Shown: positions 31,398-50,669 of the stretch, piece after piece
Position numbering within the stretch: position 1 is the first letter of the stretch
Layout of the letters: each line of letters starts with the position of its first letter
Assembly: GCF_000613945.1 (NCBI RefSeq)
Contig: NZ_BAJY01000011.1
Span: forward strand, 1-64,000
Length of the DNA stretch: 64,000 nucleotides
DNA from: Prevotella falsenii DSM 22864 = JCM 15124
GTDB taxonomy: Bacteria; Bacteroidota; Bacteroidia; Bacteroidales; Bacteroidaceae
Direction: 5' to 3'
Notes under the pieces: model-generated
Databases searched by the model: none
What the model saw: only the letters and a program-made list of their open reading frames with translations
What the model was told of the DNA's origin: nothing
Position numbers and translations under genes: made by a program

Positions 31398-31594
31398 AAC
31401 CCCAATCGTTCATTAGCGTCCTTGACCGGTTTTGTTCGATTGTCGAGCAGATGTGCCGCCATTTCATCGAAGGCGTAGCGGGCTACGGTGAGATGGAATG
31501 GCGGCGCAGATGCCGGCAAGCGGACGAAAGCAGCAAGGAAGCATGACGGTAATAACAAAGATAAGAAAATGCGTCCTAATGAGCGATTGGGGTT
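31398..31594. mobile_element. 197-bp inverted-repeat (MITE-like) element
   Basis: The ends AACCCCAATCGTTCATTAG (31398-31416) and its inverted match (31576-31594) differ at one position in 19. Inside are a GCCGCCATTTCAT/ATGGAATGGCGGC hairpin and a central GTAGCGGGCTAC at 31474. It has no coding capacity. A partial copy of the left end is at 22712. Confidence 0.6.
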
Positions 31595-31701: not shown

Positions 31702-31889
31702 GTAAAAATTATTCGCAAGCGTTGCTGTCGCATAACAGCTTTATTACCAGCGCATTACAAAACCTATTGTTTTGCATTCCAAAACCGTAGGTTTTGCACG
31801 GTAAAACCTACGGTTTAACAACGCAAAACCTACGGTTTCGCAACGTCAAACCGATTATATCACTTTTTAACAGAATTATCTTTACAAAA
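31702..31889 (+). repeat. Repeat A, copy 2
   Basis: Same orientation and length as copy 1, with modules CAAAACCTATTGTTTTGC, AAACCGTAGGTTT, AAACCTACGGTTT (twice), and the end CACTTTTTAACAGAATTATC. Confidence 0.85.
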
Positions 31890-32090: not shown

Positions 32091-32290
32091 TAAGTAGGTG
32101 TTCATAATTAATTGACATTGTATTTATGGCTATTTCCCGGTCAGTCTGCCGTCTTGAAGAAAGAGTGTAGCGGGCTACACGACTGATGAAAGGCGACAGA
32201 ATGACGGAAAAGAGACGTGAAGACGATGGCAAAGTGAAAGCATAAAAGATAAAAGCAATATAGATACGTTTAATTTTGAACACCTACTTA
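32091..32290. mobile_element. 200-bp TA-type inverted-repeat (MITE-like) element, full copy
   Basis: Perfect 14-bp terminal inverted repeats, TAAGTAGGTGTTCA at 32091-32104 and its complement at 32277-32290. The termini carry TA, as expected for Tc1/IS630-type insertion. A central GTAGCGGGCTAC hairpin is at 32168. It has no coding capacity. A shortened copy is at 34431-34522. Confidence 0.75.
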
Positions 32291-32622
32291 CGATGGACAA
32301 ATAAACTATGAGAACTAACCGAAAAGCAACTTTGTTGCTGCTCGCTGTAAGCTCAAGTGAACTGAAAAAGAAGAAAGAGGATAATGCTGAGTTTCATTTT
32401 GCACCCACAAAAACAAACCCTATCACCCATTTGTTACAATAAAAGCGACATTATGGGCAATGCTGTGCGATTTTTTCTTAAGGAAAAAGACAATTGCAAA
32501 AGATATGACAAGGCAGATATGATTAATTATTAGCAATACAAACAAAATACTGTTAAATTACATATTGCAGGAGAATAATAAAGTAATAAACGTTAAATCA
32601 TTAGTTCCTTTTAACTAATAGA

Positions 32623-32654
32623 TTTGCTTTTATCCTCATTTATTAGTATATTTG
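32623..32654 (+). promoter_or_regulatory. Promoter of the BACON/protease gene cluster
   Basis: TTTG at 32623-32626, a 20-bp spacer and TATATTTG at 32647-32654. The first gene starts about 145 bp downstream, so the mRNA has a long AT-rich leader. Confidence 0.65.
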
Positions 32655-32800: not shown

Positions 32801-34420
32801 ATGGATTTAAAAAAGACCATCTTTCCCCTGTTCTTAGGTGGAATTCTTCTTTGCCTGTTTTCATGCGCAAAGGAAGACGAATTTGAGTTACCTACATTGG
32901 TTCTTTCAGAAAACAATGTAACTTTTGACAAAGGAGTTGGTGAAAGAAACATCAGCGTAACCACTAACCAAAGTAATTGGATAGCCTCATCTCCGCACGA
33001 GGGCGAGTGGGTATCGGTTATTCAAGATGGCAACATTCTGAAAATAAAAGTTGCTGAAAACAAGATGGGTACCGACCGCACAAGCTACGTTGTCGTGAAT
33101 GCCAACGGTGCTACCGGAAAGGTAGAAGTGAAACAAAGCGCAGCCGACGTGGTGCTTGACATTACACCAACAGCAATTTATCTTCCACAAATGGGTGGAG
33201 AAAAGGTGGTTGATGTTACAAGCAATTCATCGGTCTACGAAATTACAACCAGCGAAGAAGTAGATTGGCTTAAGATACTTAAGCGCGATGAAGAGATAAA
33301 ATTGATTGCCAAACGTAACGATACCAATCATAAGCGCGAGGTAAAACTATACGCAAAGAGCGGTAACGAGACTCGTGAAATCGTCGTATCACAGTCGGGC
33401 ATACAACGTTATATCCTTCCTATCAACCCCGGTATGCCACAAGATGCTCACAAAATCATGGAATATGAACTTGGACGCGGCAGCTACTTACGCGATTATC
33501 AAACTGCCATGCCCGGCTTCGGACTTGAGGAAATGTACACTTTCATTACCCCTTCGCCCATATTCACGTTGATACAGTATTGCAGCCCTGATGGCGTTAC
33601 GTCTTCGCAGATTATTACAGTCGGCGACGGAATTGGTGCCGTAGAAGCCGTTAAGGATAAAGCGTTCGAGAAATTCCTCACCGACAGCGGGTATGTACGC
33701 AACAATTCCGAATCGGACAGAGAGTACACGAACGAGAAAGAACTTATGTCGTTGAAGATTTATATATCTGAAAAGCCCGGTAACCAAGGCGTAAACCTTA
33801 CATTCAAGCCTATTACGAAACAAATTGGAGAGTACAAGACTTTTGAGAAAGTGCCTTACTATCCTCTTGAACTCTTGCAGGTAGCAACAGTAAAAGTACC
33901 TGAAGTTGAACAATTTGAAAAGAATGCGGGAAGCAAAGAAGAAGAACGCACTTATAACGAATATAAGAATACCGAAGTGTCTCAGCTCCAATATACGCTG
34001 AAAGAAAATGCAGACCCAAGTGCTGCTTACGGTCGTATCCACATGTTCTATACAACAGGCAATGACGGAAAAGCTCCCGAAAAACTTGGAAGCGTACAGA
34101 TTGGTGCTCTTCTCTTCAAGGATACCAACCTTGGTCTATGGAAGTATGGAAACAAATGGATTGTAACGAAAGAGTTCCAAAAGAAACTTGGAGAAGAAGG
34201 ATTTTCTTTCCTTCGTTCTGCAAACAACACCCACTTCTTTGCTCGCGAACGCGACCATCTGCTCATCGCCGTTACATGCGTAGTAGACAACAACGTTCCT
34301 GTTCTTGCATTACTTTACAACTACGACGAGTCTGTATTCGGCGGAGGTAGTAAGAGTTTGAAGGCTCAAGGGAAAATGATGAAAAACTTTATGAAAGTAA
34401 AGAAAGTTTTGAAGTTTTAA
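32801..34420 (+). CDS. BACON-domain surface lipoprotein, paralogue 1
   Basis: A 539-residue lipoprotein: hydrophobic signal, then LFSC with the lipid-bearing Cys at 22, followed by acidic residues (AKEDEFE), which suits surface export in Bacteroidetes. Two BACON-type beta domains lie at about 30-115 and 120-205; the first has NWIASSPHEGEWVSV and ends in VEVKQSA. A C-terminal part of about 330 residues (MPQDAHKIMEYELGRGSYL, FGLEEMYTF) is unfamiliar and shared with the next gene. I use the ATG at 32801; a TTG nine bases upstream is less likely. Function unknown; ligand binding or partnership with the protease is inferred from context. Confidence 0.88.
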   Translation: MDLKKTIFPLFLGGILLCLFSCAKEDEFELPTLVLSENNVTFDKGVGERNISVTTNQSNWIASSPHEGEWVSVIQDGNILKIKVAENKMGTDRTSYVVVNANGATGKVEVKQSAADVVLDITPTAIYLPQMGGEKVVDVTSNSSVYEITTSEEVDWLKILKRDEEIKLIAKRNDTNHKREVKLYAKSGNETREIVVSQSGIQRYILPINPGMPQDAHKIMEYELGRGSYLRDYQTAMPGFGLEEMYTFITPSPIFTLIQYCSPDGVTSSQIITVGDGIGAVEAVKDKAFEKFLTDSGYVRNNSESDREYTNEKELMSLKIYISEKPGNQGVNLTFKPITKQIGEYKTFEKVPYYPLELLQVATVKVPEVEQFEKNAGSKEEERTYNEYKNTEVSQLQYTLKENADPSAAYGRIHMFYTTGNDGKAPEKLGSVQIGALLFKDTNLGLWKYGNKWIVTKEFQKKLGEEGFSFLRSANNTHFFARERDHLLIAVTCVVDNNVPVLALLYNYDESVFGGGSKSLKAQGKMMKNFMKVKKVLKF

Positions 34421-34430
34421 TTAAATGGTA

Positions 34431-34522
34431 TAAGTAGGTGTTCATAATTAATTGACGATGGCAAAGTGAAAGCATAAAAGATAAAAGCAATATAGATACG
34501 TTTAATTTTGAATACCTACTTA
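34431..34522. mobile_element. 92-bp internally deleted copy of the TA-type element
   Basis: It keeps both terminal repeats (TAAGTAGGTGTTCA and, inverted, TAAGTAGGTATTCA) but lacks the central 108 bp of 32091-32290. The junction falls at GAC, a trinucleotide present at both deletion edges. It sits between the two BACON genes, 22 bp upstream of the second start. Confidence 0.8.
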
Positions 34523-34543
34523 CCTTATTTAAATTTATTCGAT

Positions 34544-36148
34544 ATGCGTATAATGAATTTATATAAACTGCTGCGACTCTCATCTGTATGCCTGTTATTA
34601 GCAATGGTAGCAGGCTGCGCCGAGAGTGTTGATTTCGAACAACCGCAGCTGAGCGTCTCTGAAAAGGAGATAAAGTTTACCAATCAGATTGGTGAGAAGA
34701 CCATTTCCGTGAACACGAACTGCAAGGAATGGATTGCAACAACTCCCAAGAGTTGGATACATCTCACCCAAAACGGAAACGAGTTTATCGTAAAAGTCGA
34801 TGCAAACACGACCGGAGCGGAAAGAAGCAGCTACATTCTTGTAGATGGCGGCTTGGCTGTTGAAAAGATAATGGTAAACCAAAGTGCTGCCGACCTTTCG
34901 TTGGAAATTGCCAATGGCGAAATTATCCTGCCACAAGCAGGAGGCACAACCACCGTGGACGTAAATTTGGAAAGCAACATGTACGAAATGGTTCAGAGCG
35001 AAAAACCTGATTGGTTGCAGATTATCAAGAAGAAGCACGCTTTGAAGTTCATTTCCAAAACAAATCACAGTGCAACGGAAAGAAGCATAAAGCTTATAAT
35101 ATCGAATGCAGGAAAGAGCAACGAAGTGATTGTTAAGCAACCGGGTGTAGCTACTTTCATATTGGCATGCAACCCCGGTGCTCCTTTCAGTCTTTTCAAG
35201 ATGATGGACTTTGAATATCGCCGTGGAAGCTTGCTTTCAGAGTATGGTGCTCCGGACCCGCAAATGGGATTGTACGAAGAAAGTTATACTTTCAAGACGC
35301 CGTCCCCTTTATTCAAGGAAGTATTCTATGTTCACGACACACAATACTTTATGCCTACCCGCATCTTCACACGTTCGTTGGTCAGAGAAGGTGTCGAGGC
35401 TGTGAAAACGCAGGCTTTCCAAGATTTCGTAAAAGCCAATGGTTATGTAAGAGATACAAAAGACCCTAACCATTACATCAACGAGAAAGAACTTATGACA
35501 ATGGACGTGGACATTTTGGAAAGCAATAATAGTGTCGTGTTGTTCTTCTACCAGATGCACATTCAAGACAAAGAATACGAAACATTCAAAGAACTTCAAC
35601 TCGGACCACTCCACCTCCTGAATAAAGCCGACCAAAAAGTCAGTGAGGTAGAGGAATACGAAAAGAGTCAGAACAGCGAAGAAGTTAAACGACAGATTTC
35701 TAAAAACAGGGAAATTGAAGCCATCGTCTATAAGACAACAGACCCCATATTGGTAACTCGCACATACTTCTTATATACGCGCGGTGGAGACTATCCGGCT
35801 CCGCAAGAAATGGTAGGAAGCGTTGAGCAGTATAGCCTTAGCTTCAGCCAACCAAACTTAGGTATATGGCAACATGGTAAAGAATGGTTTGTAACTCGTG
35901 AGTTTGATAAGCTGCTTACTTCAAATAACTTTGAGTTTGTAGGCTACACCGGCAAGTTCCATGTCTATGCCCGTCGCTCTGATTATCTGACATTGGCAAT
36001 CTCCGGTGAAAAGTTTGTCGATGTGAATGAAGGACAGCCGGTAATGCAAATCGGCGTACTTTACAAACCAAATGTCTTTGCCGGAAGCAAGCAAGAGATG
36101 CTGACAAAGGTAGAGAATATACTTAAGAAACACAATCGAAAGAAATAA
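34544..36148 (+). CDS. BACON-domain surface lipoprotein, paralogue 2
   Basis: A 534-residue protein, paralogous along its whole length to the preceding gene. It has a signal peptide with VAGC (lipid Cys at 25), two BACON-type domains (EWIATTPKSWIHLTQNGNEF; KIMVNQSA) and the same C-terminal region (PGAPFSLFKMMDFEYRRGSLL, EESYTFKTPSPLF, YINEKELMTMDVDI). The frame opens at 34508 inside the small repeat element; the ATG at 34544 (or 34553) gives a normal signal peptide. This is a tandem duplication with clear divergence. The protease gene follows after 19 bp. Confidence 0.88.
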   Translation: MRIMNLYKLLRLSSVCLLLAMVAGCAESVDFEQPQLSVSEKEIKFTNQIGEKTISVNTNCKEWIATTPKSWIHLTQNGNEFIVKVDANTTGAERSSYILVDGGLAVEKIMVNQSAADLSLEIANGEIILPQAGGTTTVDVNLESNMYEMVQSEKPDWLQIIKKKHALKFISKTNHSATERSIKLIISNAGKSNEVIVKQPGVATFILACNPGAPFSLFKMMDFEYRRGSLLSEYGAPDPQMGLYEESYTFKTPSPLFKEVFYVHDTQYFMPTRIFTRSLVREGVEAVKTQAFQDFVKANGYVRDTKDPNHYINEKELMTMDVDILESNNSVVLFFYQMHIQDKEYETFKELQLGPLHLLNKADQKVSEVEEYEKSQNSEEVKRQISKNREIEAIVYKTTDPILVTRTYFLYTRGGDYPAPQEMVGSVEQYSLSFSQPNLGIWQHGKEWFVTREFDKLLTSNNFEFVGYTGKFHVYARRSDYLTLAISGEKFVDVNEGQPVMQIGVLYKPNVFAGSKQEMLTKVENILKKHNRKK

Positions 36149-36167
36149 TATTGAAAGAAATATAGTA

Positions 36168-38930
36168 ATGAAAAAATCTATTATATATTTATGCGCGTGT
36201 GCTATCTTTGGTATGATGCTCACAACATCGTGCCAAGATAACTTAGATTTGGAAGCAACCCACTCCGATACACGCTCTGTTACCATTGATAAAGATATGT
36301 TTGCAGTAAAAGGCTGCATCAATGTAAAGTTGGCAAAGGGTACCAACCACGCCATACCAAGCTCTCCTAATGGAAACGTAGAGATGCAGAATGTACCTTC
36401 AGCAATGGCTTCGGCAATGAGATACTCAGGTGCTTATAAAATGGAAAGAGTTTTCAAGCCTGCAGGAATCTATGAAGCACGAACAGTAGCAGAAGGGCTC
36501 GACCGTTGGTACACTATCTATTTCGACGAAAGCAAAGATGTTTCTGCCGTGCTACAACAGTTCGATAAAGTAAACGGAATAGAGTATGCAGAACGTGTCC
36601 TGCCCATTGCACGTCCGAAAGTTACGGCAAAGTCCTATACAAACTCAAATGCAAGCGCAGATATGCAAGCTGCTTCAGGTGTCTTTAACGACCCATATCT
36701 GTCAAAGCAGTGGCATTATTACAATGACGGCTCGGTAAGTGCACACGCAAAGAAAGGAGCAGACTGTAATGTAAAGCCCGTATGGGAAAAGTACACAACC
36801 GGTAAAAGCAATGTCATTGTTGCCATCGTCGATGGTGGTATCGATGTTACCCATGAAGACTTGATGGATAACCTCTACATCAACGAAAAGGAGAAGAACG
36901 GCCAACCGAATGTTGATGATGATGGTAACGGATTTGTAGACGACGTTTACGGTTATAACTTCGTAACGGCAAACGATGTTGTCGGAGGCAAAATCGAACC
37001 CGACGACAGCGGACATGGCACACACGTTGCCGGTACTGTTGGGGCACGCAACAACAACGGAAAGGGTGTTGCAGGTATAGCAGGTGGCGACGGAACTGCA
37101 GGAAGTGGCGTGCGACTTATGAGTTGCCAAATTTTCAGAAAGGGAGATGAACAAGGTGATGCAGCAGCAGCCATTAAATACGCAGCTGACAATGGAGCCG
37201 TCATCTGTCAGAACTCTTGGGGATACCCATCAACAGCCAATGTTACTGAAATGCCCAGATTACTGAAAGAAGCTATCGACTATTTCATCAAGATGGCAGG
37301 TTGTGATGCTACAGGACAGCAACGACCAAATTCTCCAATGAAGGGAGGCGTTGTCATATTCGCTGCAGGCAACGAGAACAAAGAGTTTTCTGCTTATCCG
37401 GCCTGCTACGCGCCGACAGTGTCAGTTTCTGCTATGGCTTGGGATTTCACTAAGGCAAGTTATAGCAACTTTGCCAAATGGGTTACCATTATGGCACCGG
37501 GTGGAGACCAAGACACTTTCGGCAACGAAGGAGGCGTTTTAAGCACTGTACCAAAGACCAGAGACGCTTCAGGCTACGCCTATTTCCAAGGAACATCAAT
37601 GGCTTGTCCACACGTTTCAGGTATTGCAGCACTTATTGCATCGTATTTCGGAAAGCAAGGCTTCACCAATGAAGAATTGAAGACACGTTTGATTACTGCA
37701 TACAGACCTTTCAACATTGACGAATTAAATCCAATATATAAAGGAAAGTTAGGTAAAGGATACATCGACGCTGAAGCAGCCTTTGAATCTGATACAAAGA
37801 TTGCACCTGAGAAGGTAGGAACATTGACGCTTACACCGGACTTCGTGGATATTACTGCCGAATGGAGCATTGCAAAAGATGAGGATAAGACCGCAGCGTT
37901 CTACAGATTGTACATCAGTCCTAACGAACTGACTGCTGATAATCTCAAGGATATGAACTATCAGGAAATAAATGGTGTGGGACACTATTTAGGCGAAACG
38001 CTTAAGTTTACTTTCGACAATCTAAAAGATAACAAGACGTACAGCATTGCCGTAATAGCAGTAGACCGCTGGGGCAACCTCTCTGAACCTGTTATTCAGA
38101 AATGTACAACGAAACTTAACCATGCTCCGGAAGTTACCGGTTTCCCGGAAGGAATTATCGAATTAAACAACAATGACCGAAAGACTTTCAGTTTCAAAGT
38201 TACCGATCCCGATGGACACGAATGGGATTTAAAGACTACCGGCGAAACCAAAGGCGTATCGTACACAGTTAATAAATCTACTGTAACCGTTACCATTGTT
38301 CCCGTTCTCGAATCGGGCAGCTACACTTGTACGTTTGTTTTCTCAGATGATTTAGGAGCAAAATCAGAGAAGAGCTTTACATTTAAGATTTTGAAGTATA
38401 TGCCTCCGAAGTTGGAGAAGCCATTCGACAACTATATAATAGGATTAGATGAGGGCTCCGTGAATATTCCTTTGAAAGGACATTATACCAACAGTGGCAG
38501 CAATCAGCTTTCTTACAAAGCCAATGTTTCAAACAGCAACATCGCCACAGTCGAAGTCAGCAACGACAATCTTCAGCTAAAACCGTTGGCAAAGGGTATA
38601 ACCCGCATTAGCGTTCTTGCATCAGATGGTCATCAAACCTCTTCTGAAGGCTCTTTCCAAATTCGTGTCGTTGAGAAAAAGTCAGCCCCTGTTTATGCAG
38701 TTTATCCGGTTCCGGTGAAGAAAGACATCAATGCTCTGCTCAATCCTGAAGTAAAACAGGCGGAATTTGTTATCAGTTCTACCGTAGGAGAGCAGGTAAT
38801 GAAAGCTACCGTAACTCCGGACAAGAACAATGTTGCTACACTTGACCTTGCCAAACTACACTCCGGAACTTACAAACTTACCGTGCATACGAGCAAGGGC
38901 AATTACACTCAAATGTTCATTAAACGATAA
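36168..38930 (+). CDS. Subtilisin-family (S8) serine protease with T9SS-like C-terminal domain
   Basis: A 920-residue exported protease. The signal peptide ends TTSC (lipobox, Cys22). An N-terminal pro-domain-like region runs to about 200. The S8 triad is Asp222 (AIVDGGID), His283 (DSGHGTHVAG) and Ser477 (QGTSMACPHVSG), with the oxyanion Asn402 (AAGNEN). Then come a fibronectin-III-like domain (about 550-645), Ig/cadherin-like domains (650-840) and a C-terminal domain beginning YPVPVKKDINAL and ending SGTYKLTVHTSKGNYTQMFIKR, which resembles the type A T9SS sorting domain. It lies 19 bp after a BACON lipoprotein gene and 11 bp before a PorV-type gene. Confidence 0.92.
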   Translation: MKKSIIYLCACAIFGMMLTTSCQDNLDLEATHSDTRSVTIDKDMFAVKGCINVKLAKGTNHAIPSSPNGNVEMQNVPSAMASAMRYSGAYKMERVFKPAGIYEARTVAEGLDRWYTIYFDESKDVSAVLQQFDKVNGIEYAERVLPIARPKVTAKSYTNSNASADMQAASGVFNDPYLSKQWHYYNDGSVSAHAKKGADCNVKPVWEKYTTGKSNVIVAIVDGGIDVTHEDLMDNLYINEKEKNGQPNVDDDGNGFVDDVYGYNFVTANDVVGGKIEPDDSGHGTHVAGTVGARNNNGKGVAGIAGGDGTAGSGVRLMSCQIFRKGDEQGDAAAAIKYAADNGAVICQNSWGYPSTANVTEMPRLLKEAIDYFIKMAGCDATGQQRPNSPMKGGVVIFAAGNENKEFSAYPACYAPTVSVSAMAWDFTKASYSNFAKWVTIMAPGGDQDTFGNEGGVLSTVPKTRDASGYAYFQGTSMACPHVSGIAALIASYFGKQGFTNEELKTRLITAYRPFNIDELNPIYKGKLGKGYIDAEAAFESDTKIAPEKVGTLTLTPDFVDITAEWSIAKDEDKTAAFYRLYISPNELTADNLKDMNYQEINGVGHYLGETLKFTFDNLKDNKTYSIAVIAVDRWGNLSEPVIQKCTTKLNHAPEVTGFPEGIIELNNNDRKTFSFKVTDPDGHEWDLKTTGETKGVSYTVNKSTVTVTIVPVLESGSYTCTFVFSDDLGAKSEKSFTFKILKYMPPKLEKPFDNYIIGLDEGSVNIPLKGHYTNSGSNQLSYKANVSNSNIATVEVSNDNLQLKPLAKGITRISVLASDGHQTSSEGSFQIRVVEKKSAPVYAVYPVPVKKDINALLNPEVKQAEFVISSTVGEQVMKATVTPDKNNVATLDLAKLHSGTYKLTVHTSKGNYTQMFIKR

Positions 38931-38941
38931 TTACAACGAGT

Positions 38942-39894
38942 ATGAAGTCAAAACACATCATCATAATTGCTTGCGTAGCACTTTTCGGTGCTACGCAGGC
39001 TAATGCCCAAGGGCAAGACCTTTCAATATTAACTGCAAATACCGATGCCCGAACAGCCGCTATGGGCAATGCATTGGTAGCTGCCAAGGGAATGTATTTA
39101 TACAATAATCCGTCTGCACTTTTCGGTGTGGATAAGAAATTTACGGCAGATGTTTCTGCTTCCCTATACGAAAAGGAAGAAAATGTTGAAGGTACATTCG
39201 GGCTATACACAGCTGCTGTGGGCTATAAGTTCGCCAAACGCCATGCTGCATTTGCCGGTTTCCGCTATGCAGGTGGATTAAAAATCAAGGGATACGATAT
39301 GCTTGGAGAACCAACCAAAGATTACAAGCCCTACAATTGGACCATAGATTTTGGCTATGCTATATGATTGGCAAAGGTTTTTCAGCCTATGCAACGGGAA
39401 GTGTTATCTTCAGCCATCTCTCAAAAAACGCCAATGGTGGTGCATTTACCGTAGGAGCTTCTTATCAGAACAACAATATGACAGTAGCAAACAAGCATGC
39501 AAACTTCATGGTAGATGCCAAAGTTGCTGCAATCGGTCCTAAACTCGATTACGGCAATGGCTACAAGGTTTCAATGCCTACACATGTTGCAGTAGGTGGA
39601 ACGTTGTCGGTGGATATGGCAGACAAGCATCAAGTAGGAGCAGCATTGTCTACACGTTATTTCTTCCAGCCATCAGAATCTAAGGTTTTCATGGTTGGCG
39701 GCGGACTCGAATACACCTATAATAATATGGTGTCGGTGCGGGCAGGCTACGAATATGGCGACCACAACCTCAGCCACCTTACTATGGGTGTAGGCATAAA
39801 GTATCGCGGACTACGTCTTAACGGAGGTTATATGCTGAAAACAGTTGATGCCGGAAGCAGCTATTGCACCGTTGGTGTCGGATACGATTTCTAA
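38942..39894 (+). pseudogene. PorV/PorQ-family outer-membrane barrel, frameshifted as sequenced
   Basis: A FadL-like barrel of the PorV/PorQ type, with signal peptide IIACVALFGATQANAQ and the family-typical start SILTANTDARTAAMGNALVA followed by YNNPSALFG. The first frame stops at GYAI. The second continues with MIGKGFSAYATGSVIFSHLS and ends in alternating beta strands (SSYCTVGVGYDF). Adding one T at 39361 restores a 317-residue protein. PorV carries T9SS cargo to the surface peptidase PorU, so its position next to a protease with a T9SS-like tail is notable. Error or mutation cannot be separated here. Confidence 0.82.
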
Positions 39895-39942
39895 AATACA
39901 ATGAATGAATTATTTATTTATCTAATCTAAAAATATAGAATT

Positions 39943-41505
39943 ATGAGAAAAACTTTATTTTCTATCTGCGCATTAGCATTGAGCTTTACAGCTTCAGCAC
40001 AGATAGTAGACACACCAAAAGGAAAGCTAATTGATAATATGTATCGCAGCAGCGAGTCTTGGGTAAAGAAAGGCTGGATAGGAACAGAACCCGGTGTATA
40101 CGAAGGCTTGGTTTCTAAAATTGTGGAAGGCGAAGATGGCTGCCTTTACGTTTACAATCCTCTTTCCGGACTTGACAGTAAATCTTGGTTGAAATTAGAC
40201 AAGGTGAGCGACGGAAAATACAAGGCGGCTTTGCCACAGGTATTCCATAAAGATACAAGCGGAGGAGACGACGATGAAGATTCAGGCAACTCTGAACGTA
40301 TATTTACCCTTAACCGCATGTCAATCAAAGACAACAACCAGTACGAAGTTGTGGCAGCAAACAAGAACTATATGGAGTACACTTGGGACGGCTCTACTCT
40401 TAAAATGTTAGGAGTAGGTTCCAAGAACGAAATATTGGGAATGGTAGACAACAGCAACACGTGGGATAACCATTATGGCGACTGGTCTGTAACCATTCAA
40501 ACTTTCGACAACAAACTTGTTACCCCTCCTGCTTCTGCTGTTAAAAAGCAGTACAGTCTTACTTGCAAGGGAGAAACATCTCCACGCATTATCGAGGCTG
40601 CAGTAGATGGCAACGACATTTACTTGAAAGGAATTTCAAAAAGCGCGAAACTTGCCAATGCGTGGGTGAAGCTCACAACAGACGGAAACAAGGCTGTATT
40701 GCTGACAAACCAGTATCTTGGCAAAGCTATAAAAGCTGATTTCCTTAAGTATTCGAACGACCCATCGGAGTATCACGCTTTCGCAGCAGCTTTCAATGAT
40801 GCTACAACCATTGCAGAAAAGCTCGAATTCAGCATCAATACTACAAACGGAGTGCTGACCAACGACAAAGTACTCAGAATTATGATGGGTAAGAGCAGTG
40901 AAAGCAATATACCAAAAGAAGACCTTGAAGTTCTCGAGAATTTAGTATTGACTCCATTCCAACAAAAGGCAGCCAAACCAGAAACGCCAAAGTTGCACTA
41001 CTGTTCGGCTGTTGAGAGCTACGATTATTCGACAACTACCATCACTTTGGCTTTCTATGTAAGAAATGTTGATGTTGATGGCAACTATCTCGACCCTGAC
41101 AAGATGTACTATAATGTTTACCTCGGCGATAGCACAGAACCTTTCAAGTTCACAAAAGCCCAATTCTTCTATATAGAGAAAGATATGATTGACATTCCTT
41201 TCAACTATCAAGACAAGAAGAATGAAGACATCAAGGTCGTGGACGACCAGCGCATCTTGCACTTCTACGACCCTTCTATAAAGAAGATTTCCGTAGTAAT
41301 GGTGTACGAGGAAGATGGCAAGAAGTATTCAAGCGAACCAATGACTACCGAAGTTGTCTATGCAGGTATCGAGAATGCCACCATTAACGACAACACCACC
41401 GAGAAGTACTACTCTGTCGATGGTTACAGACTTCAACACTTACAGAAAGGTCTGAACATCGTCAAATCTTCTAACGGAACAACCAAGAAGATTTTCGTAA
41501 AGTGA
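39943..41505 (+). CDS. Secreted protein of unknown function
   Basis: A 520-residue protein with a clean signal peptide (MRKTLFSICALALSFTASAQ). The body is beta-rich with no family I recognise. It includes an acidic stretch (SGGDDDEDSGN, about residue 110) and a Y/F-rich segment (about 350-440). The tail KYYSVDGYRLQHLQKGLNIV followed by KKIFVK resembles the short C-terminal modules of Prevotella exported proteins. It is the last gene of the cluster, 48 bp after the PorV-type gene, and is followed by a terminator. Confidence 0.8.
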   Translation: MRKTLFSICALALSFTASAQIVDTPKGKLIDNMYRSSESWVKKGWIGTEPGVYEGLVSKIVEGEDGCLYVYNPLSGLDSKSWLKLDKVSDGKYKAALPQVFHKDTSGGDDDEDSGNSERIFTLNRMSIKDNNQYEVVAANKNYMEYTWDGSTLKMLGVGSKNEILGMVDNSNTWDNHYGDWSVTIQTFDNKLVTPPASAVKKQYSLTCKGETSPRIIEAAVDGNDIYLKGISKSAKLANAWVKLTTDGNKAVLLTNQYLGKAIKADFLKYSNDPSEYHAFAAAFNDATTIAEKLEFSINTTNGVLTNDKVLRIMMGKSSESNIPKEDLEVLENLVLTPFQQKAAKPETPKLHYCSAVESYDYSTTTITLAFYVRNVDVDGNYLDPDKMYYNVYLGDSTEPFKFTKAQFFYIEKDMIDIPFNYQDKKNEDIKVVDDQRILHFYDPSIKKISVVMVYEEDGKKYSSEPMTTEVVYAGIENATINDNTTEKYYSVDGYRLQHLQKGLNIVKSSNGTTKKIFVK

Positions 41506-41546: not shown

Positions 41547-41584
41547 AGGGCGCATCCGAATTTCAGGTGCGCCCTTATTGTTTT
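41547..41584 (+). terminator. Terminator of the BACON/protease cluster
   Basis: AGGGCGCA (41547-41554) pairs with TGCGCCCT (41568-41575), followed by TATTGTTTT. It lies 41 bp after the last stop of the cluster. Confidence 0.75.
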
Positions 41585-46099: not shown

Positions 46100-47413
46100 A
46101 TGGCAAATTTAGTAGCAATCGTAGGCCGTCCCAATGTGGGCAAGTCTACACTTTTCAACCGATTAACCCAAAGTCGCCGCGCCATTGTAAGCGATACGGC
46201 AGGCACAACACGCGACCGCCAATATGGCAAATGCCAATGGAACGGACGCGAATTTTCAGTTGTCGATACCGGCGGTTGGGTTGTTAATTCCGACGACATA
46301 TTCGAAGATGCTATCCGTAAGCAAGTTTTAGTGGCTACGGAGGAAGCCGACTTCGTGCTTTTTGTTGTCGATAACGAAACCGGCATTACCGATTGGGACG
46401 AAGATGTTGCACAAATTCTTCGTCGCAGCAAGCTCCCTGTAATTCTTGTTGCCAACAAAGTAGACAACAGTGGCGAATACTATATGTCGGCAGAGTTCTA
46501 TCGTTTAGGTCTTGGCGACCCTGTTTGTATCAGCGCACAGACGGGCAGCGGGACGGGAGAATTGCTCGACTTGCTTCTCGAGCGCATGAAAGATGCTCCC
46601 GAAGAAGGACTTGAAGACGAAATACCACGCTTTGCGGTTGTCGGTCGTCCCAATGCCGGAAAGTCGAGCCTTATCAATGCCTTCATCGGCGAGGACCGCA
46701 ACATCGTAACAGAGATAGCGGGCACGACGCGCGACAGCATTTATACGCGCTACAATAAGTTTGGGTTCGACTTCTATCTTGTCGATACGGCAGGTATCCG
46801 TCGTAAGAACAAGGTAACAGAAGACCTTGAGTTCTATTCCGTTATGCGCTCTATTCGCAGCATAGAGAATGCCGATGTGTGTATTCTGATGATTGATGCC
46901 ACACGCGGAATTGAGGCGCAGGATATGAATATCTTCCAGCTGATTCAGCGAAACAACAAGAGTTTGGTGGTGGTAGTGAACAAATGGGACCTTGTAGAGA
47001 ACAAGGATCAGAAAGTAATCAAGACTTTCGAGAATGCCATTCGCGAGCGTATGGCTCCGTTTGTAGACTTTCCCATCATCTTTGCATCGGCACTTACCAA
47101 GCAACGCATCTTCAAGATACTCGACGTAGCAAAGCAAGTGTATCTGAACAGAAACATGCACATTGGCACAACCAAGCTCAACGAAGTGTTGTTGCCCATC
47201 ATTGAGGAAACGCCGCCACCATCGGTAAAGGGCAAATACATCAAGATAAAATACTGTTCGCAGTTGCCCAACACGCAAATACCATCGTTTGTGTTCTATG
47301 CCAACTTGCCACAGTATGTCAGAGAACCCTATCGCCGCTTTTTGGAAAACAAGATACGCGAACGTTGGAACCTTAACGGTTGTCCCATCAATGTGTTTAT
47401 ACGTCAGAAATAA
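46100..47413 (+). CDS. der: Double-GTPase ribosome biogenesis factor Der (EngA)
   Basis: A 437-residue protein with two tandem GTPase domains and a C-terminal KH-like domain, needed for 50S assembly. First domain: [23 protein letters not shown]. Second domain: [32 protein letters not shown]. The C-terminus [19 protein letters not shown] is typical. A structured spacer precedes it and a small lipoprotein gene follows by 14 bp. Confidence 0.97.
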
Positions 47414-47427
47414 ACAGTTATAAAAGT

Positions 47428-47826
47428 ATGAAACGACTACTTTATGCCTTGCTTCTCGCAGTTCTTCTCCTTCCTTCTTGCAGCAGAAAGAAGGAAACAG
47501 ACCACGGTGCAATAGCGGCAGAAGCAGCGAAGCACTATTACGAAAATCTTATTTCGGGCAAATACAAACAGTTCTTAGAGGGTATGAACCTGCCCGACAA
47601 ACTGCCTGAAAGTTACGAACGCCAAATGCTCGAAAACTTCAAGGTGTTTGCCAAACGACAAGACAAAGAGCACAAAGGCATAAAGAAAGTAAGCGTTCGT
47701 AGTGCCCGGTTCTTTGCAAAAGACAGTACGGCAAGTGCTTTCCTTTTACTTCATTATGGCGACAGCACCACCGAACAAATAGTAGTTCCTATGCTTAAGA
47801 AGCACGGTTTATGGTATATGCGCTGA
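47428..47826 (+). CDS. Small lipoprotein of unknown function
   Basis: A 132-residue predicted lipoprotein: MKRLLYALLLAVLLLPSCSR, lipobox LPSC with Cys18. The rest is a compact alpha/beta protein (AAKHYYENLISGKYKQFLEG, SAFLLLHYGDSTTEQIV) resembling small NTF2-like or DUF4878-type accessory lipoproteins, though I cannot assign a family. The ATG at 47428 is preferred to an upstream one inside der, since it gives a proper signal. It is probably co-transcribed with der. Confidence 0.8.
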   Translation: MKRLLYALLLAVLLLPSCSRKKETDHGAIAAEAAKHYYENLISGKYKQFLEGMNLPDKLPESYERQMLENFKVFAKRQDKEHKGIKKVSVRSARFFAKDSTASAFLLLHYGDSTTEQIVVPMLKKHGLWYMR

Positions 47827-47918
47827 TGCAATTATTATAATAGAAACCAAACAACGATGCCGTTTATTCAGAAAATGAATAAGCGGCATTATTGTTTTCG
47901 CAATTCGGTGGAACAAAA

Positions 47919-48093
47919 GATACCGAGCAACCAACAAAAAGATACCGAGCAACCAACGAAAAGATACCGAGCAATCAACAAAAAGATACCGAGCAATCAA
48001 CAAAAAGATACCGAGCAATCAACGAAAAGATACCGAGCAACCAACAAAAAGATACCGAGCAATCAACAAAAGATACCGAGCAATCAACGAAAA
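47919..48093. repeat. 22-bp tandem repeat array (VNTR)
   Basis: Eight units start at 47919, 47941, 47963, 47985, 48007, 48029, 48051 and 48072, each beginning GATACCGAGCAA. Seven starts are exactly 22 bp apart and the last step is 21. Units differ only at C/T and A/G positions. There are no spacers, so it is not a CRISPR array. It fills the gap between convergent genes. Confidence 0.92.
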
Positions 48094-48128
48094 GCTCCTA
48101 AGCTTTCGTTGGAAAGCTTAGGAGCTTT
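48091..48128. terminator. Bidirectional terminator between the lipoprotein gene and mlaF
   Basis: A perfect 16-bp inverted repeat, AAAGCTCCTAAGCTTT (48091-48106) with 48113-48128, and a 6-nt loop. A- and T-rich flanks serve both converging genes. Confidence 0.85.
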
Positions 48129-48155
48129 AAAAGTATATCTCCACGCTGATACTGT

Positions 48156-48923
48156 TTACTTGGCTTCTTCGTTCTCTACTTCTTTCACTTTCTTGAACAA
48201 ATCGGACGCAAATACAAGGTCGTTCAGTTTTTTGTTATTCGCCGACATCACCAAATCCTTGTTGCCTTGCCATTCTGCTTTTCCGTCGGCAATGAAGACA
48301 ATGTTTTCGCCAATACCCATTACGGAATTCATATCGTGGGTGTTGATGATGGTCGTAATGTTGTACTCTTTTGTAATATCCGACAAAAGCTCGTCGATTA
48401 CCAGCGAAGTTTTAGGGTCGAGACCGGAATTCGGCTCGTCGCAAAACAAGTATTTAGGGTTCATTACCACCGCCCGCGCAATGGCAACACGCTTTTGCAT
48501 ACCACCGGAAATTTCTCCCGGATATTTGTTTTCTGCTCCTGTGAGGTTCACACGGTCGATACACTTCTGCGCTTGTCGGTCTCTTTCTTTCGATGTCATA
48601 TCCGAAAACATATCGAGCGGAAAGCGAACGTTCTCTAAAACCGTAAGCGAGTCGAACAATGCCGAGCCTTGGAAAATCATTCCCATCTCCCTTCGCATGG
48701 CAATCTTTTCCTTTTTGCTCATCATTACGAAATTACGGTCGTCGTAGAGCACCTCGCCGCGTGTGGGTTCGAGCAGTCCGACAAGGCATTGCACCAGCAC
48801 AGTTTTTCCCGCACCGCTCTGTCCGATGATAAGATTTGTCTTACCATCTTCAAATTTCGTGTTTATATCGTGAAGAACCTCTTTGTCTCCGAACGATTTA
48901 TATAGGTTTCTAACTTCTATCAT
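48156..48923 (-). CDS. mlaF: ABC transporter ATP-binding protein, MlaF-type
   Basis: A 255-residue ATPase of the Mla/Mce phospholipid-transport type. Walker A GQSGAGKTVLVQ, Q-loop MIFQGSALFDSL (typical of MlaF), signature EISGGMQKRVAIARA, Walker B YLFCDEPNSGLDP and a switch His in NTHDMNS. It lies 33 bp after the permease gene. No MlaD (MCE) gene is in the window on this side, so the substrate-binding part must be elsewhere. Confidence 0.92.
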   Translation of the reverse strand: MIEVRNLYKSFGDKEVLHDINTKFEDGKTNLIIGQSGAGKTVLVQCLVGLLEPTRGEVLYDDRNFVMMSKKEKIAMRREMGMIFQGSALFDSLTVLENVRFPLDMFSDMTSKERDRQAQKCIDRVNLTGAENKYPGEISGGMQKRVAIARAVVMNPKYLFCDEPNSGLDPKTSLVIDELLSDITKEYNITTIINTHDMNSVMGIGENIVFIADGKAEWQGNKDLVMSANNKKLNDLVFASDLFKKVKEVENEEAK

Positions 48924-48956
48924 CTTTGTTTACGCCGATTAAGAAAAGGTGTCGTG

Positions 48957-49703
48957 TCAGCTTAAAAGTTGTGTCAGGAATACATCGCTGAACAAAATCA
49001 GCACGCTGGAACTAACCACCGCATTGGTAGAAGACGTGCCCACTTCTACCGAACCGCCTTTCACCGTATAGCCAAAGAACGACGACACACTCGCAATGAT
49101 AAAGGCAAAGAAAAGGCTCTTTGTGATACTCATATACATGAACCACGGGTTGAAGTCGTGCTGAAGTCCTGCCGTCAGGTCTACGGGTGTGATAATGTGG
49201 GCAACGTAAGCAGTTGCGTATGCTCCCACGATACCCATTGCAGCAGAAAAGACAACCAAGAACGGCATAATCGTAATAAGTCCTACTATCTTCGGCAGTA
49301 TCAAGTAGCCGGCAGAATTAATGCCCATAATCTCCAAAGCATCGATTTGCTGGGTAACACGCATTGTGCCCAATTCGGAAGCAATGTTCGACCCCACCTT
49401 TCCTGCGAGGATAAGACACATGATACTCGACGAAAACTCGAGCAACATAATTTCGCGCGTAACGTATCCCGACACCCAAAGAGGCATCCACGGACTTTGC
49501 ACGTTCAGTTTTATCTGTATGCAGATAACCGCTCCGATGAAGAACGAAATCAGCAAAACGATGCCGATGGAATCGACACCAAGCTGCGACATCTCCTTGA
49601 CATATCGTTTTAAAAACATACGGAAACGTTCGGGACGACTGCATGCACGCCCCATTAAAAGCAAGTATCTGCCGAAAACTGTAAGCCAATTGAATATAAG
49701 CAT
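48957..49703 (-). CDS. mlaE: MlaE-type ABC transporter permease
   Basis: A 248-residue inner-membrane permease (DUF140/MlaE) with about five membrane spans. The conserved cytoplasmic helix EMSQLGVDSIGIVLLISFFI, the loop RVTQQIDALEIMGINSAGYL and the end KGGSVEVGTSSTNAVVSSSV match the family. With MlaF it forms the core of a phospholipid transporter that keeps outer-membrane lipid asymmetry. It is transcribed divergently from lptB, so two envelope-lipid systems share one intergenic region of 138 bp. Confidence 0.92.
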   Translation of the reverse strand: MLIFNWLTVFGRYLLLMGRACSRPERFRMFLKRYVKEMSQLGVDSIGIVLLISFFIGAVICIQIKLNVQSPWMPLWVSGYVTREIMLLEFSSSIMCLILAGKVGSNIASELGTMRVTQQIDALEIMGINSAGYLILPKIVGLITIMPFLVVFSAAMGIVGAYATAYVAHIITPVDLTAGLQHDFNPWFMYMSITKSLFFAFIIASVSSFFGYTVKGGSVEVGTSSTNAVVSSSVLILFSDVFLTQLLS

Positions 49704-49729
49704 TGTTGTTAGTTTAATCTACGCAGATG

Positions 49730-49737
49730 CAAAAGTA
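49730..49737 (-). promoter_or_regulatory. -7 promoter element of mlaE-mlaF
   Basis: TACTTTTG on the minus strand fits TAnnTTTG, 27 bp upstream of the mlaE ATG. Confidence 0.5.
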
Positions 49738-49781
49738 ACCAAAATCCGCTAAAAAACTGCAATATAAACCATTGTTTTAAG

Positions 49782-49798
49782 TAATATCAATGATATTA
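49782..49798. promoter_or_regulatory. Palindromic operator candidate upstream of lptB
   Basis: TAATATCA-A-TGATATTA is a perfect 8-bp inverted repeat with a one-base centre. It sits 13 bp upstream of the lptB -7 box, overlapping the place of the missing -33 element. Confidence 0.4.
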
Positions 49799-49811
49799 GC
49801 ATTTATTTTAC

Positions 49812-49819
49812 TACTTTTG
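49812..49819 (+). promoter_or_regulatory. -7 promoter element of lptB
   Basis: TACTTTTG fits TAnnTTTG, 22 bp upstream of the lptB ATG. No TTTG at -33; a palindrome lies there instead. Confidence 0.5.
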
Positions 49820-49841
49820 CAACACAGAAACAAAATAGCAG

Positions 49842-50669
49842 ATGCTCGACACTGAAAACATAATCATTGAACCCGAAAGCAATAAAAGCAGCGTTCTTCG
49901 CACCGAAGGACTCGTGAAGCGATACGGCAAACGCACCGTTGCCAACGGCGTAAGTATCAATGTGCGACAAGGAGAGATTGTTGGCTTGTTAGGTCCGAAC
50001 GGCGCAGGCAAGACAACATCGTTCTACATGACTACCGGTTTGGTTGTTCCAAACGAGGGACACGTTTACATCGACGAACAGGAAATTACCAATTATCCTG
50101 TCTACAAGCGTGCCAAAGCCGGCATCGGCTACTTGCCGCAGGAAGCAAGCGTATTCCGAAAGATGAGCGTCGAAGACAATATTATGAGCGTGCTGGAGAT
50201 GACCAAGCTCACCAAGCAGCAGCGCATAGAGAAGATGGAAAGCCTCATCAAAGAGTTCCGCTTGGAGAAAGTGCGCAAAAACCTTGGCGACCGTCTTTCG
50301 GGAGGCGAGCGACGCAGATGCGAAATAGCACGTTGCTTGGCGATAGACCCTAAGTTCATTATGCTCGACGAGCCTTTCGCAGGCGTGGACCCTATTGCGG
50401 TGGAAGACATTCAGCACATTGTCTGGCGGCTGAAGTTCCGCAATATCGGCATTCTCATTACCGACCACAACGTGCACGAAACGCTGAACATTACCGACCG
50501 TGCCTATCTGCTCTTTGAAGGGCAGATACTTTTCAAAGGAACACCCGAAGAACTGGCTGCCAACAAGATTGTGAAAGAAAAGTATTTGGGTACGGAATTT
50601 GTGCTGCAAAAGAAAGATTTCCAACTGTTGGACGAACGCAAGCGAGCAAAAGAAGCAGACGGAGAATAA
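49842..50669 (+). CDS. lptB: LPS export ABC transporter ATP-binding protein LptB
   Basis: A 275-residue ATPase that powers lipopolysaccharide extraction with LptF/LptG. Walker A GPNGAGKTTSFYMTTG (LptB-typical FYM), Q-loop GIGYLPQEASVFRKM, signature RLSGGERRRCEIARCLA, Walker B FIMLDEPFAGVDPIAVEDI and switch ITDHNVHETL. It has an N-terminal extension of about 20 residues and a C-terminal tail compared with E. coli LptB. It is divergent from mlaE and followed by ettA after 63 bp. Confidence 0.95.
   Translation: MLDTENIIIEPESNKSSVLRTEGLVKRYGKRTVANGVSINVRQGEIVGLLGPNGAGKTTSFYMTTGLVVPNEGHVYIDEQEITNYPVYKRAKAGIGYLPQEASVFRKMSVEDNIMSVLEMTKLTKQQRIEKMESLIKEFRLEKVRKNLGDRLSGGERRRCEIARCLAIDPKFIMLDEPFAGVDPIAVEDIQHIVWRLKFRNIGILITDHNVHETLNITDRAYLLFEGQILFKGTPEELAANKIVKEKYLGTEFVLQKKDFQLLDERKRAKEADGE

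What the first reader, a model, noticed from the sequence alone, without database searches (positions are those of the whole stretch)
32801..41505. Five-gene surface cluster: two BACON lipoproteins, S8 protease, PorV-type barrel, secreted protein
Five genes on one strand, gaps of 11-124 bp, one consensus promoter and one terminator. All products carry export signals. The two lipoproteins share an unfamiliar C-terminal region of about 330 residues. The combination suggests a surface assembly in which the barrel serves the protease and the lipoproteins bind ligand, substrate or the protease itself. I know of no described system with this composition; function is inference.
Basis: partly seen in the sequence, partly recalled or inferred. 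Interest (0 to 1): 0.8.

Follow-up and report, generated by a model that had tools for sequence, protein, structure and literature searches.

The report
Lipid-anchored surface protease with private barrel
This stretch of an oral Prevotella genome encodes what looks like a cell-surface protein-cutting module (a lipid-anchored protease, its own outer-membrane barrel, two lipoproteins and a secreted protein), and the protease-barrel pair also occurs in related bacteria in which the secretion machine that such proteins normally use was not found.

Summary
The five genes are real and keep order and strand in 16 of 16 genomes that have them, among 398 searched in the genus. In the window the barrel gene's frame is broken; in 29 other loci (19 genomes) it is intact.

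Parts are already in print. A P. intermedia transcriptome table lists what must be this cluster as 7.8-11.3-fold up under iron depletion; gene 5's P. intermedia orthologue is a mass-spectrometry-proven type IX secretion (T9SS) cargo.

What I did not find described is the core: a subtilase with both a lipoprotein signal and a T9SS type A C-terminal domain (CTD), next to a PorV-family barrel that is neither PorV nor PorQ. It recurs across Bacteroidales with BACON lipoproteins and sometimes SusCD. In P. intermedia 20 of 20 other CTD proteins checked have ordinary signal peptides. In four genomes without detected T9SS translocon, motor or sortase, all 17 detected CTDs sit on lipidated S8 proteases, and each has one over-cut-off PorV-family barrel, of the same clade.

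Best reading: the protease surfaces as a lipoprotein and docks its CTD in its own barrel; BACON lipoproteins capture substrate; in Prevotella it is an iron-starvation protein-digesting module. Docking and substrate are inferred.

The parts
32623..32654 (+). Bacteroidota-type promoter match, TTTG-N20-TATATTTG
   Evidence: Pattern scan of 18 upstream regions: same match at the same distance in L053; looser or partial matches in most others, none in three (L057, L061, L074)
32801..34420 (+). lipA: lipoprotein (Cys22), two BACON domains, ~330-aa C-terminal region
   Evidence: PF13004 E 4.2e-11; lipobox Cys in alignment A1; AF2 pLDDT 85, residues 6-180 BACON/Ig-like, best match 3zmr_B Z 12.2, rmsd 1.7, 86 aligned
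34553..36148 (+). lipB: paralogue of lipA (39% identity); start could also be 34544 or 34508
   Evidence: PF13004 E 4.9e-11; A1; follows lipA in 16 of 16 genomes
36168..38930 (+). S8 subtilase: lipobox, S8_N, catalytic domain, Ig/fn3-like domains, T9SS type A CTD
   Evidence: PF00082 1.4e-41, PF16361 2.4e-31, PF18962 9.1e-07; TIGR04183 4.3e-07; Cys22 and the D222, H283, S477 positions (triad motifs recalled) invariant in A3
38700..38927 (+). T9SS type A sorting domain (CTD) of the S8 protease, no GI cleavage motif before it
   Evidence: TIGR04183 36.1 bits, positions 1-72; linkers of 19 orthologues
38942..39894 (+). PorV-family barrel gene; reading frame broken in the window between 39337 and 39367
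   Evidence: Two ORFs in different frames; PorV_fam 70 and 129 bits on the two pieces; one frame in 29 of 29 other loci from 19 genomes
39943..41505 (+). gene 5: secreted protein (ordinary signal peptide) with short T9SS CTD; orthologue of P. intermedia A0A1P8JDA6
   Evidence: Published C-terminal glycopeptide of A0A1P8JDA6 is encoded exactly in the orthologue in L053 (PMC11969387); GI at the cleavage position in 15 of 15 (A2); AF2 pLDDT 86
41548..41584 (+). terminator-like hairpin GGGCGCA/TGCGCCC with T-rich tail
   Evidence: Read from the sequence; loop too long for the scan

Best explanation
A surface protein-capture-and-cleavage module induced by iron starvation. (1) The S8 protease is exported by Sec, lipidated at Cys22 and reaches the cell surface as a lipoprotein (inferred; signals shown). 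(2) Its uncleaved type A CTD docks in the dedicated PorV-family barrel encoded immediately downstream, which fixes or presents it at the outer membrane; the precedents are PorQ holding PorZ and PorP/SprF-like barrels holding type B cargo (inferred from genetic pairing, CTD-barrel co-occurrence and genomes without detected T9SS). (3) The two BACON lipoproteins sit beside it and capture or hold protein substrate through their unfamiliar C-terminal region (inferred). (4) Gene 5 is an ordinary T9SS cargo, cleaved and glycan-anchored (shown for the P. intermedia orthologue). (5) In oral Prevotella the module is switched on when iron is short (published for P. intermedia) and probably cuts host proteins to release haem, iron or peptides (inferred).
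For: Conserved unit: 16 of 16 genomes. The S8 is the exception among CTD proteins: in G107 (P. intermedia by exact published peptides) 20 of 20 other CTD proteins checked, of 23, have ordinary signal peptides, while the S8 N-terminus is lipoprotein-like in 19 of 19 orthologues read. Pairing: of 41 S8 ORFs at 35 loci, 13 have a PorV-family barrel downstream, and all 13 are lipoprotein-like and CTD-bearing; two more cases appeared when barrel loci were read. A lipidated S8 without CTD in a genome with paired ones lacks the barrel (L148). T9SS not needed everywhere: G497, G516, G504 and G588 give no SprA or GldM hit and no PorU over cut-off; all 17 of their TIGR04183 hits are on lipidated S8; each has one PorV-family barrel over cut-off. 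In a 34-row tree the two of these that lie apart from S8 (G504, G588) and the S8-linked barrels group away from PorV and PorQ (87/86). Iron: PIOMA14_I_1836-40 up 7.8-11.3-fold (PMC10434189 Table 3). Related loci carry SusD-type and TonB-receptor genes upstream.
Against: No binding, location or enzyme data for the S8, barrel or lipoproteins. The window's genome has SprA (split), GldM, PorU, PorV and PorQ hits, so the S8 may simply be secreted by T9SS there. Lipoboxes were judged by eye or a loose pattern, not by SignalP; two of the 20 'ordinary' signal peptides hold an ALAC inside their hydrophobic core (L286, L293). TIGR04183 does not detect short CTDs such as gene 5's, so other CTD proteins may exist in the four genomes. 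In G504 and G588 the barrel is not adjacent to any S8. Among the 15 barrel-linked S8 outside the query type, one (L145) has a GI and four an AI or SI in the 30 residues before the CTD. Outside the order, the non-canonical barrels I saw are not S8-linked. GldM and PorU were also not found in G480 and G639, which do have SprA, so only the SprA absence is strong. The larger first tree (41 rows, one misread row) supported the barrel group weakly (48/49). The iron link rests on product names and order, not on a sequence check of those tags. The window's own barrel is broken.
Confidence: 0.5

Rival explanations
1. Dedicated T9SS shuttle: the S8 is secreted through Sov by T9SS and collected by the operon barrel instead of PorV, as PorP/SprF-like shuttles do for type B cargo. 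The lipobox adds an anchor or is incidental.
For: The CTD is a genuine type A domain; the window's genome has T9SS genes; the barrel profile's closest solved relative is PorV itself (6h3i_F, E 3e-53); cognate shuttle genes directly downstream of cargo are established for type B (PMC12618676, passages).
Against: Pair kept in G497 and G516, where no SprA, GldM or over-cut-off PorU is found; the S8 is the only CTD protein with a lipoprotein signal among 21 examined in G107; no GI cleavage motif in 19 of 19 orthologues.
Confidence: 0.3
2. A protein- or peptide-utilisation locus (the protein counterpart of a polysaccharide utilisation locus): the function is general nutrient capture, the Prevotella form lacks the SusC-SusD pair, and iron control is secondary.
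For: TonB receptor-SusD-lipoprotein(s)-S8-barrel order in L111-113, L150-152 and L213; SusD confirmed by Pfam in L111, L150, L152 and L213, TonB receptor in L150 and L152.
Against: No SusD match in 30 stretches around the query-type operon; TonB-receptor matches in only three of them (L058 and L080, one genome, and L076), none within the operon. Iron induction is published for P. intermedia. Compatible with the best explanation for the other loci.
Confidence: 0.35
3. The CTD is only an Ig-like domain in these proteases and the barrel is an unrelated small-molecule channel of the FadL/PorV fold that happens to be co-transcribed.
For: No direct interaction data; weak barrel-profile matches to TodX channels (E 1e-4).
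Against: CTDs reach TIGR04183 and PF18962; of 41 S8 ORFs the barrel neighbours only ones with a CTD; the barrels score as PorV family and group beside PorV.
Confidence: 0.12
4. Degraded or non-functional operon in this strain.
For: Frame break in the barrel; the same draft genome also has SprA split into two frames.
Against: The four other genes are intact and 85-93% identical to P. intermedia; a frame break in another draft (lipA in P. aurantiaca, L063/L079) suggests sequence error as an alternative.
Confidence: 0.2

Closest known systems
P. intermedia OMA14 PIOMA14_I_1836-40 (iron-depletion stimulon, PMC10434189 Table 3)
   Same: Five consecutive tags annotated hypothetical, PorV/PorQ, S8 serine peptidase, BACON: the same content; G107's other two over-cut-off PorV-family barrels score as PorV and PorQ.
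   Different: Seen only as a table row, without a function; I did not compare sequences by locus tag.
P. intermedia T9SS cargo A0A1P8JDA6 (PMC11969387, Results read)
   Same: Orthologue of gene 5: the published glycopeptide is encoded exactly in L053; short CTD, cleavage before GI.
   Different: The Results and passages I read do not discuss the operon, its barrel or the S8; they model this CTD with the canonical PorV.
PorQ-PorZ of the T9SS attachment complex
   Same: A PorV-family barrel holding an uncleaved CTD (review PMC10202324, passages).
   Different: Not described there as a lipidated protease; the operon barrel is below the PorQ cut-off and outside the PorQ clade.
PorP/SprF-like shuttles with type B CTD cargo (PMC12618676 abstract and passages; PMC9143113 one passage)
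   Same: Barrel gene directly downstream of its CTD cargo gene.
   Different: Here the CTD is type A, the barrel is PorV-family, the cargo is lipoprotein-like, and the pair also occurs where no T9SS was found.
B. thetaiotaomicron BT0211-13 (BACON, S8 peptidase, DUF1573; PMC10434189 table, passage)
   Same: BACON protein next to an S8 peptidase.
   Different: No barrel listed; down in iron depletion (-5.9 to -2.6, P 0.15-0.24); sequence not compared.

Membership tests
PorV/PorQ family (NF033709) | Score over the curated cut-off of 90 bits | tested here: met
   G107 orthologue 214.9 bits; the window's broken copy gives 70 and 129 bits in two pieces
T9SS PorV (NF033710 equivalog) | Over 250 bits and inside the PorV clade | tested here: not met
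   92 bits; outside the PorV group in the tree
T9SS PorQ (NF033711 equivalog) | Over 220 bits and inside the PorQ clade | tested here: not met
   45.5 bits; PorQ clade 100/100 excludes it
T9SS type A cargo: S8 protease | TIGR04183 / PF18962 C-terminal domain | tested here: met
T9SS type A cargo: S8 protease | Ordinary (SPI) signal peptide, as in the other CTD proteins of the genome | tested here: not met
   Lipobox with invariant Cys22; 20 of 20 others SPI-like. Motif reading, not SignalP
T9SS type A cargo: S8 protease | PT/GI-type sortase cleavage site before the CTD | tested here: not met
   No GI in 19 of 19 orthologue linkers; one (L075) has AI inside the CTD start. The paper also reports non-typical sites, so this does not exclude cleavage
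T9SS type A cargo: S8 protease | Secretion depends on T9SS | not testable with these tools
   Needs a mutant
T9SS cargo with short CTD: gene 5 | CTD with cleavage motif, SPI signal, proven C-terminal glycan on an orthologue | tested here: met
   Exact peptide in L053, GI in 15 of 15, PMC11969387 Table 1
Type B CTD / PorP-SprF pair | Type B CTD (TIGR04131, accession from PMC12618676) on the cargo | tested here: not met
   NCBIfam scan of the S8 lists TIGR04183 and no TIGR04131 up to E 0.1
SusCD-containing utilisation locus | Adjacent SusC and SusD | tested here: not met
   No SusD match in 30 stretches around the query-type operon; present in related loci
BACON-domain lipoproteins | PF13004 over cut-off and a lipobox | tested here: met
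   A1

The most novel reading that the evidence does not exclude
A third, T9SS-independent branch of the PorV family: barrels that act as private docking sites for lipid-anchored subtilases through a T9SS-type CTD. In some Bacteroidales this lipoprotein-CTD-barrel pair is all that is seen to use type A CTDs, so the CTD there is a surface docking tag and not a secretion signal; whether it is older than, or a relic of, the T9SS partnership becomes testable.
Probability: 0.42. Interest if true: 0.82.

Novelty: new variant of a known kind. Interest (0 to 1): 0.62.

Why it matters
Type A CTDs are treated as T9SS secretion signals and PorV as their common shuttle. A clade of PorV-family barrels paired with lipidated CTD proteases, kept in genomes where no translocon, motor or sortase was found, would separate 'CTD binds a barrel' from 'CTD goes through T9SS' and give a minimal two-protein system to study that contact. 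It would also turn an unnamed line in an iron-starvation transcriptome table of a periodontal species into a defined surface proteolysis module.

Tried and rejected
Consensus promoter and terminator scan: no better than shuffles.

'Unfamiliar C-terminal region is unique to this pair': rejected; a profile of it finds proteins beside S8 proteases in L145-L148 (seven hits), though not in L111-L113 or L213. No PDB sequence match. A tandem duplication inside it is only hinted at (hhalign probability 28.7, score 29.2; best of 30 shuffles 18.7).

Gene 5: Foldseek found nothing of whole-protein value; VIA-align places residues 322-454 near fn3 domains (best 5fmv_B, Z 8.9, rmsd 2.2, 87 aligned), which shows no function.

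'Barrel present whenever S8 has a CTD': rejected. Of the 28 S8 ORFs without an adjacent barrel, 18 have a CTD hit; nine of them are lipidated S8 of G504/G588; of the other nine, eight exceed 1000 aa and eight show no lipobox by the pattern. The S8 loci were chosen by an S8 search and only part of its hits was read, so 13 of 41 is not a population rate.

'Every non-PorV, non-PorQ barrel is S8-linked': rejected; L208 and L209 have no S8 in 18 kb, L214, L215 and L225 none in 1.5-kb flanks. The wider stretches L243-L245 were fetched but not read for S8.

First barrel tree (41 rows) had one wrongly extracted row (PorV_L183, 451 aa) and weak support for the linked group (48/49). The second (34 rows) corrects that row and leaves out L155, L211, L212, L214, L215, L082 and L085.

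Barrel surveys at order and class level: the match lists were filled by canonical PorV and cut off, so no rate was taken from them.

In the query-type set the S8 of L065 was left out because its match is in two pieces; lipA of L079 was left out of A1.

Paper searches in which I saw no description of an S8/PorV-like pair or of lipidated CTD cargo (listings; some followed by passages). Passages of PMC10897501, PMC5837995 and PMC9127263 were looked at and not used. Supplements could not be read, so the S8 may be in the 80-protein cargo table of PMC11969387.


Full report
THE OBSERVATION. The cluster is real: lipA 32801-34420, lipB 34553-36148, an S8 protease 36168-38930, a PorV-family barrel 38942-39894 and gene 5 39943-41505, all on the + strand. 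Domain calls: BACON twice in each lipoprotein; Peptidase_S8_N, Peptidase_S8 and Por_Secre_tail in gene 3; PorV/PorQ family for the barrel. The barrel is not one open frame in the window (two ORFs in different frames). It is one frame in 29 of 29 other loci, from 19 genomes, so intact copies exist; whether the break is real or a draft error cannot be told. A Bacteroidota-type promoter match (pattern recalled) lies at 32623-32654 and recurs in the nearest relative; a hairpin follows gene 5 (read).

CONSERVATION. A search with the C-terminal region of lipA found relatives in 16 of 398 genomes of the genus, the window's own included, each with two or more matches that form the lipA-lipB pair. Regions from the 15 others carry all five genes in the same order and strand; lipA is split in one (L063) and the S8 match is in two pieces in another (L065). 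A named-genome scan gave 14 loci, ten of them from the same genomes: Prevotella multiformis, veroralis, denticola, histicola, jejuni, corporis, aurantiaca, conceptionensis, ihumii and brunnea, two Hoylesella species, an Alloprevotella isolate and a MAG; all 14 have the five genes. The flanking genes differ between the window and P. veroralis. One genome (G107) encodes exactly the published P. intermedia peptide YSSDPLTTEVVYA in gene 5, and another CTD protein there contains the start of a second published stretch, SLEMIEQDVHN, so I take G107 as P. intermedia and the window as a close sister (lipA 93% identical).

WHAT IS ALREADY IN PRINT. PMC10434189 (section on P. intermedia, part 1 of 2, read) lists PIOMA14_I_1836-40, 'Hypothetical protein, PorV/PorQ protein, S8 family serine peptidase, BACON domain protein', as 7.8-11.3-fold up under iron depletion. 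G107 has three PorV-family barrels over cut-off; one is the operon's, the others score as PorV and PorQ, so this must be the same operon, though I did not compare sequences by tag. PMC11969387 (Results section read; passages) identifies A0A1P8JDA6 as a T9SS cargo with a short CTD, cleaved after KYSSDPLTTEVVYA and carrying a C-terminal glycan: gene 5's orthologue. GI follows the cleavage position in 15 of 15 gene 5 sequences.

THE PROTEASE IS AN ODD CTD PROTEIN. Its CTD is type A (TIGR04183). Its N-terminus is a lipoprotein signal with an invariant Cys22. In G107 there are 28 TIGR04183 hits; four look like copies repeated at the other end of the contig, leaving 24, the S8 included. I read the N-termini of 20 of the other 23: 20 of 20 have ordinary signal peptides by eye, two of them with an ALAC inside the hydrophobic core. 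The S8 linker before the CTD has no GI cleavage motif in 19 of 19 orthologues. Signal types were judged from motifs, not SignalP.

THE PAIR OUTSIDE PREVOTELLA. A search of 247 genomes of the order with the S8 profile gave 31 with hits at E 1e-60. I read 32 loci from these hits (not every hit) and three paralogous operons and scored 41 S8 ORFs at 35 loci. Thirteen have a PorV-family barrel downstream: 12 as the next gene, one as the first of a tandem S8 pair. All 13 have a CTD hit and a lipoprotein-type N-terminus. Two further pairs, L211 and L213, appeared when I read barrel loci. Of the 28 without an adjacent barrel, 10 have no CTD hit (two run off a stretch end) and 18 do; nine of those 18 are lipidated S8 of G504 and G588. 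L148, a lipidated S8 without CTD, has no barrel although three other S8 loci in the same genome do (L146, L147, L213). My CTD profile was trained on 16 S8 sequences, all barrel-linked; Pfam's Por_Secre_tail matched 9 of 9 barrel-linked proteins scanned at E 0.01 (7 over its cut-off) and not L148. The neighbours vary: BACON proteins in L111, L145-L149 and L213; TonB receptor and SusD upstream in L111-L113, L150-L152 and L213, with SusD confirmed by Pfam in the four loci tested and the receptor in L150 and L152 (the L111 and L213 receptor pieces, cut by the stretch end, gave no Pfam match). No SusD match was found in 30 stretches around the query-type operon.

THE BARREL. It is PorV family (214.9 bits for the intact G107 copy) but far under the PorV and PorQ cut-offs (92 of 250; 45.5 of 220). 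The barrel profile's best solved relative is PorV (6h3i_F). In a 34-row tree the S8-linked barrels form one group (87/86) apart from PorV (93/74) and PorQ (100/100); the single barrels of G504 and G588 fall inside it. An earlier 41-row tree with a misread row gave 48/49 for the linked group.

GENOMES WITHOUT DETECTED T9SS. G497, G516, G504 and G588 (99% complete as listed, three families) show no SprA, no GldM and no PorU over cut-off (three weak PorU hits, in G516 and G588, lie in the same places as S8 CTDs). SprA was found in 7 of 13 genomes searched (G000, G107, G480, G639, G511, G582, G559); besides the four, G623 and G043 also lack it. GldM and PorU are also not found over cut-off in G480 and G639, so those two models alone are not decisive. 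All TIGR04183 hits in the four genomes (1, 2, 6 and 8) lie on lipidated S8 proteases; short CTDs would be missed by this model. Each genome has exactly one PorV-family barrel over cut-off, next to the S8 in G497 and G516 and elsewhere in G504 and G588. G582, same genus as G497, has SprA and GldM but no PorU, and its only over-cut-off barrels are the two S8-linked ones.

THE LIPOPROTEINS. AF2 models lipA at pLDDT 85: two BACON domains (3zmr_B, Z 12.2, rmsd 1.7, 86 aligned) and an alpha/beta C-terminal region whose fold was not tested separately. A profile of that region finds proteins in L145-L148, no PDB sequence.

MECHANISM. Shown: the gene unit, the domains, the double signal on the S8, the pairing and its presence where T9SS is not detected, gene 5's cargo status (orthologue), iron induction (published). 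Inferred: surface arrival of the S8 as a lipoprotein, CTD docking in the barrel, substrate capture by BACON lipoproteins, digestion of host proteins for iron, haem or peptides. The main rival is that in T9SS-bearing species the barrel is a dedicated T9SS shuttle; a T9SS-null strain decides.

VERDICT. The operon is known as data but I found no description of it as a system (ten paper searches, listed under Tried and rejected). The surprising part is the lipidated CTD protease with a private barrel of a third PorV-family group, which in some genomes stands without a detectable T9SS.

Noticed in passing
window 38942-39894; G000:C73:42585-46586 and 46580-49924: Besides the barrel, the SprA/Sov gene of the window's own draft genome is also split into two frames; either draft error or a decaying T9SS in this strain.
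   Followed up: partly
window 32308-32442: Short ORF (44 aa) upstream of lipA; a related 84-aa ORF lies upstream in the P. intermedia locus L053. PIOMA14_RS09340, the next tag to the operon, is up 8.5-fold in iron depletion and could be it.
   Followed up: partly
window 31398-31594 and 32091-32290: Two units of about 200 bp with 19-21 nt terminal inverted repeats, MITE-like, both holding GTAGCGGGCTAC, in the intergenic region before lipA; otherwise only loosely alike.
   Followed up: partly
window 31758-31853: Four imperfect 30-nt repeats spaced 22 nt.
   Followed up: no
L063 and L079 (P. aurantiaca), L065 and L069 (P. conceptionensis): lipA is split into two pieces in P. aurantiaca; the S8 match is in two overlapping pieces in P. 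conceptionensis.
   Followed up: no
L145 9481-18001: In G480 four encoded proteins match the lipA C-terminal profile and a fifth matches lipA by tblastn, beside one S8-barrel pair: an expanded set.
   Followed up: no
L154, L297 (G588): Nine lipidated S8 proteases within about 30 kb of a genome without detected T9SS.
   Followed up: partly
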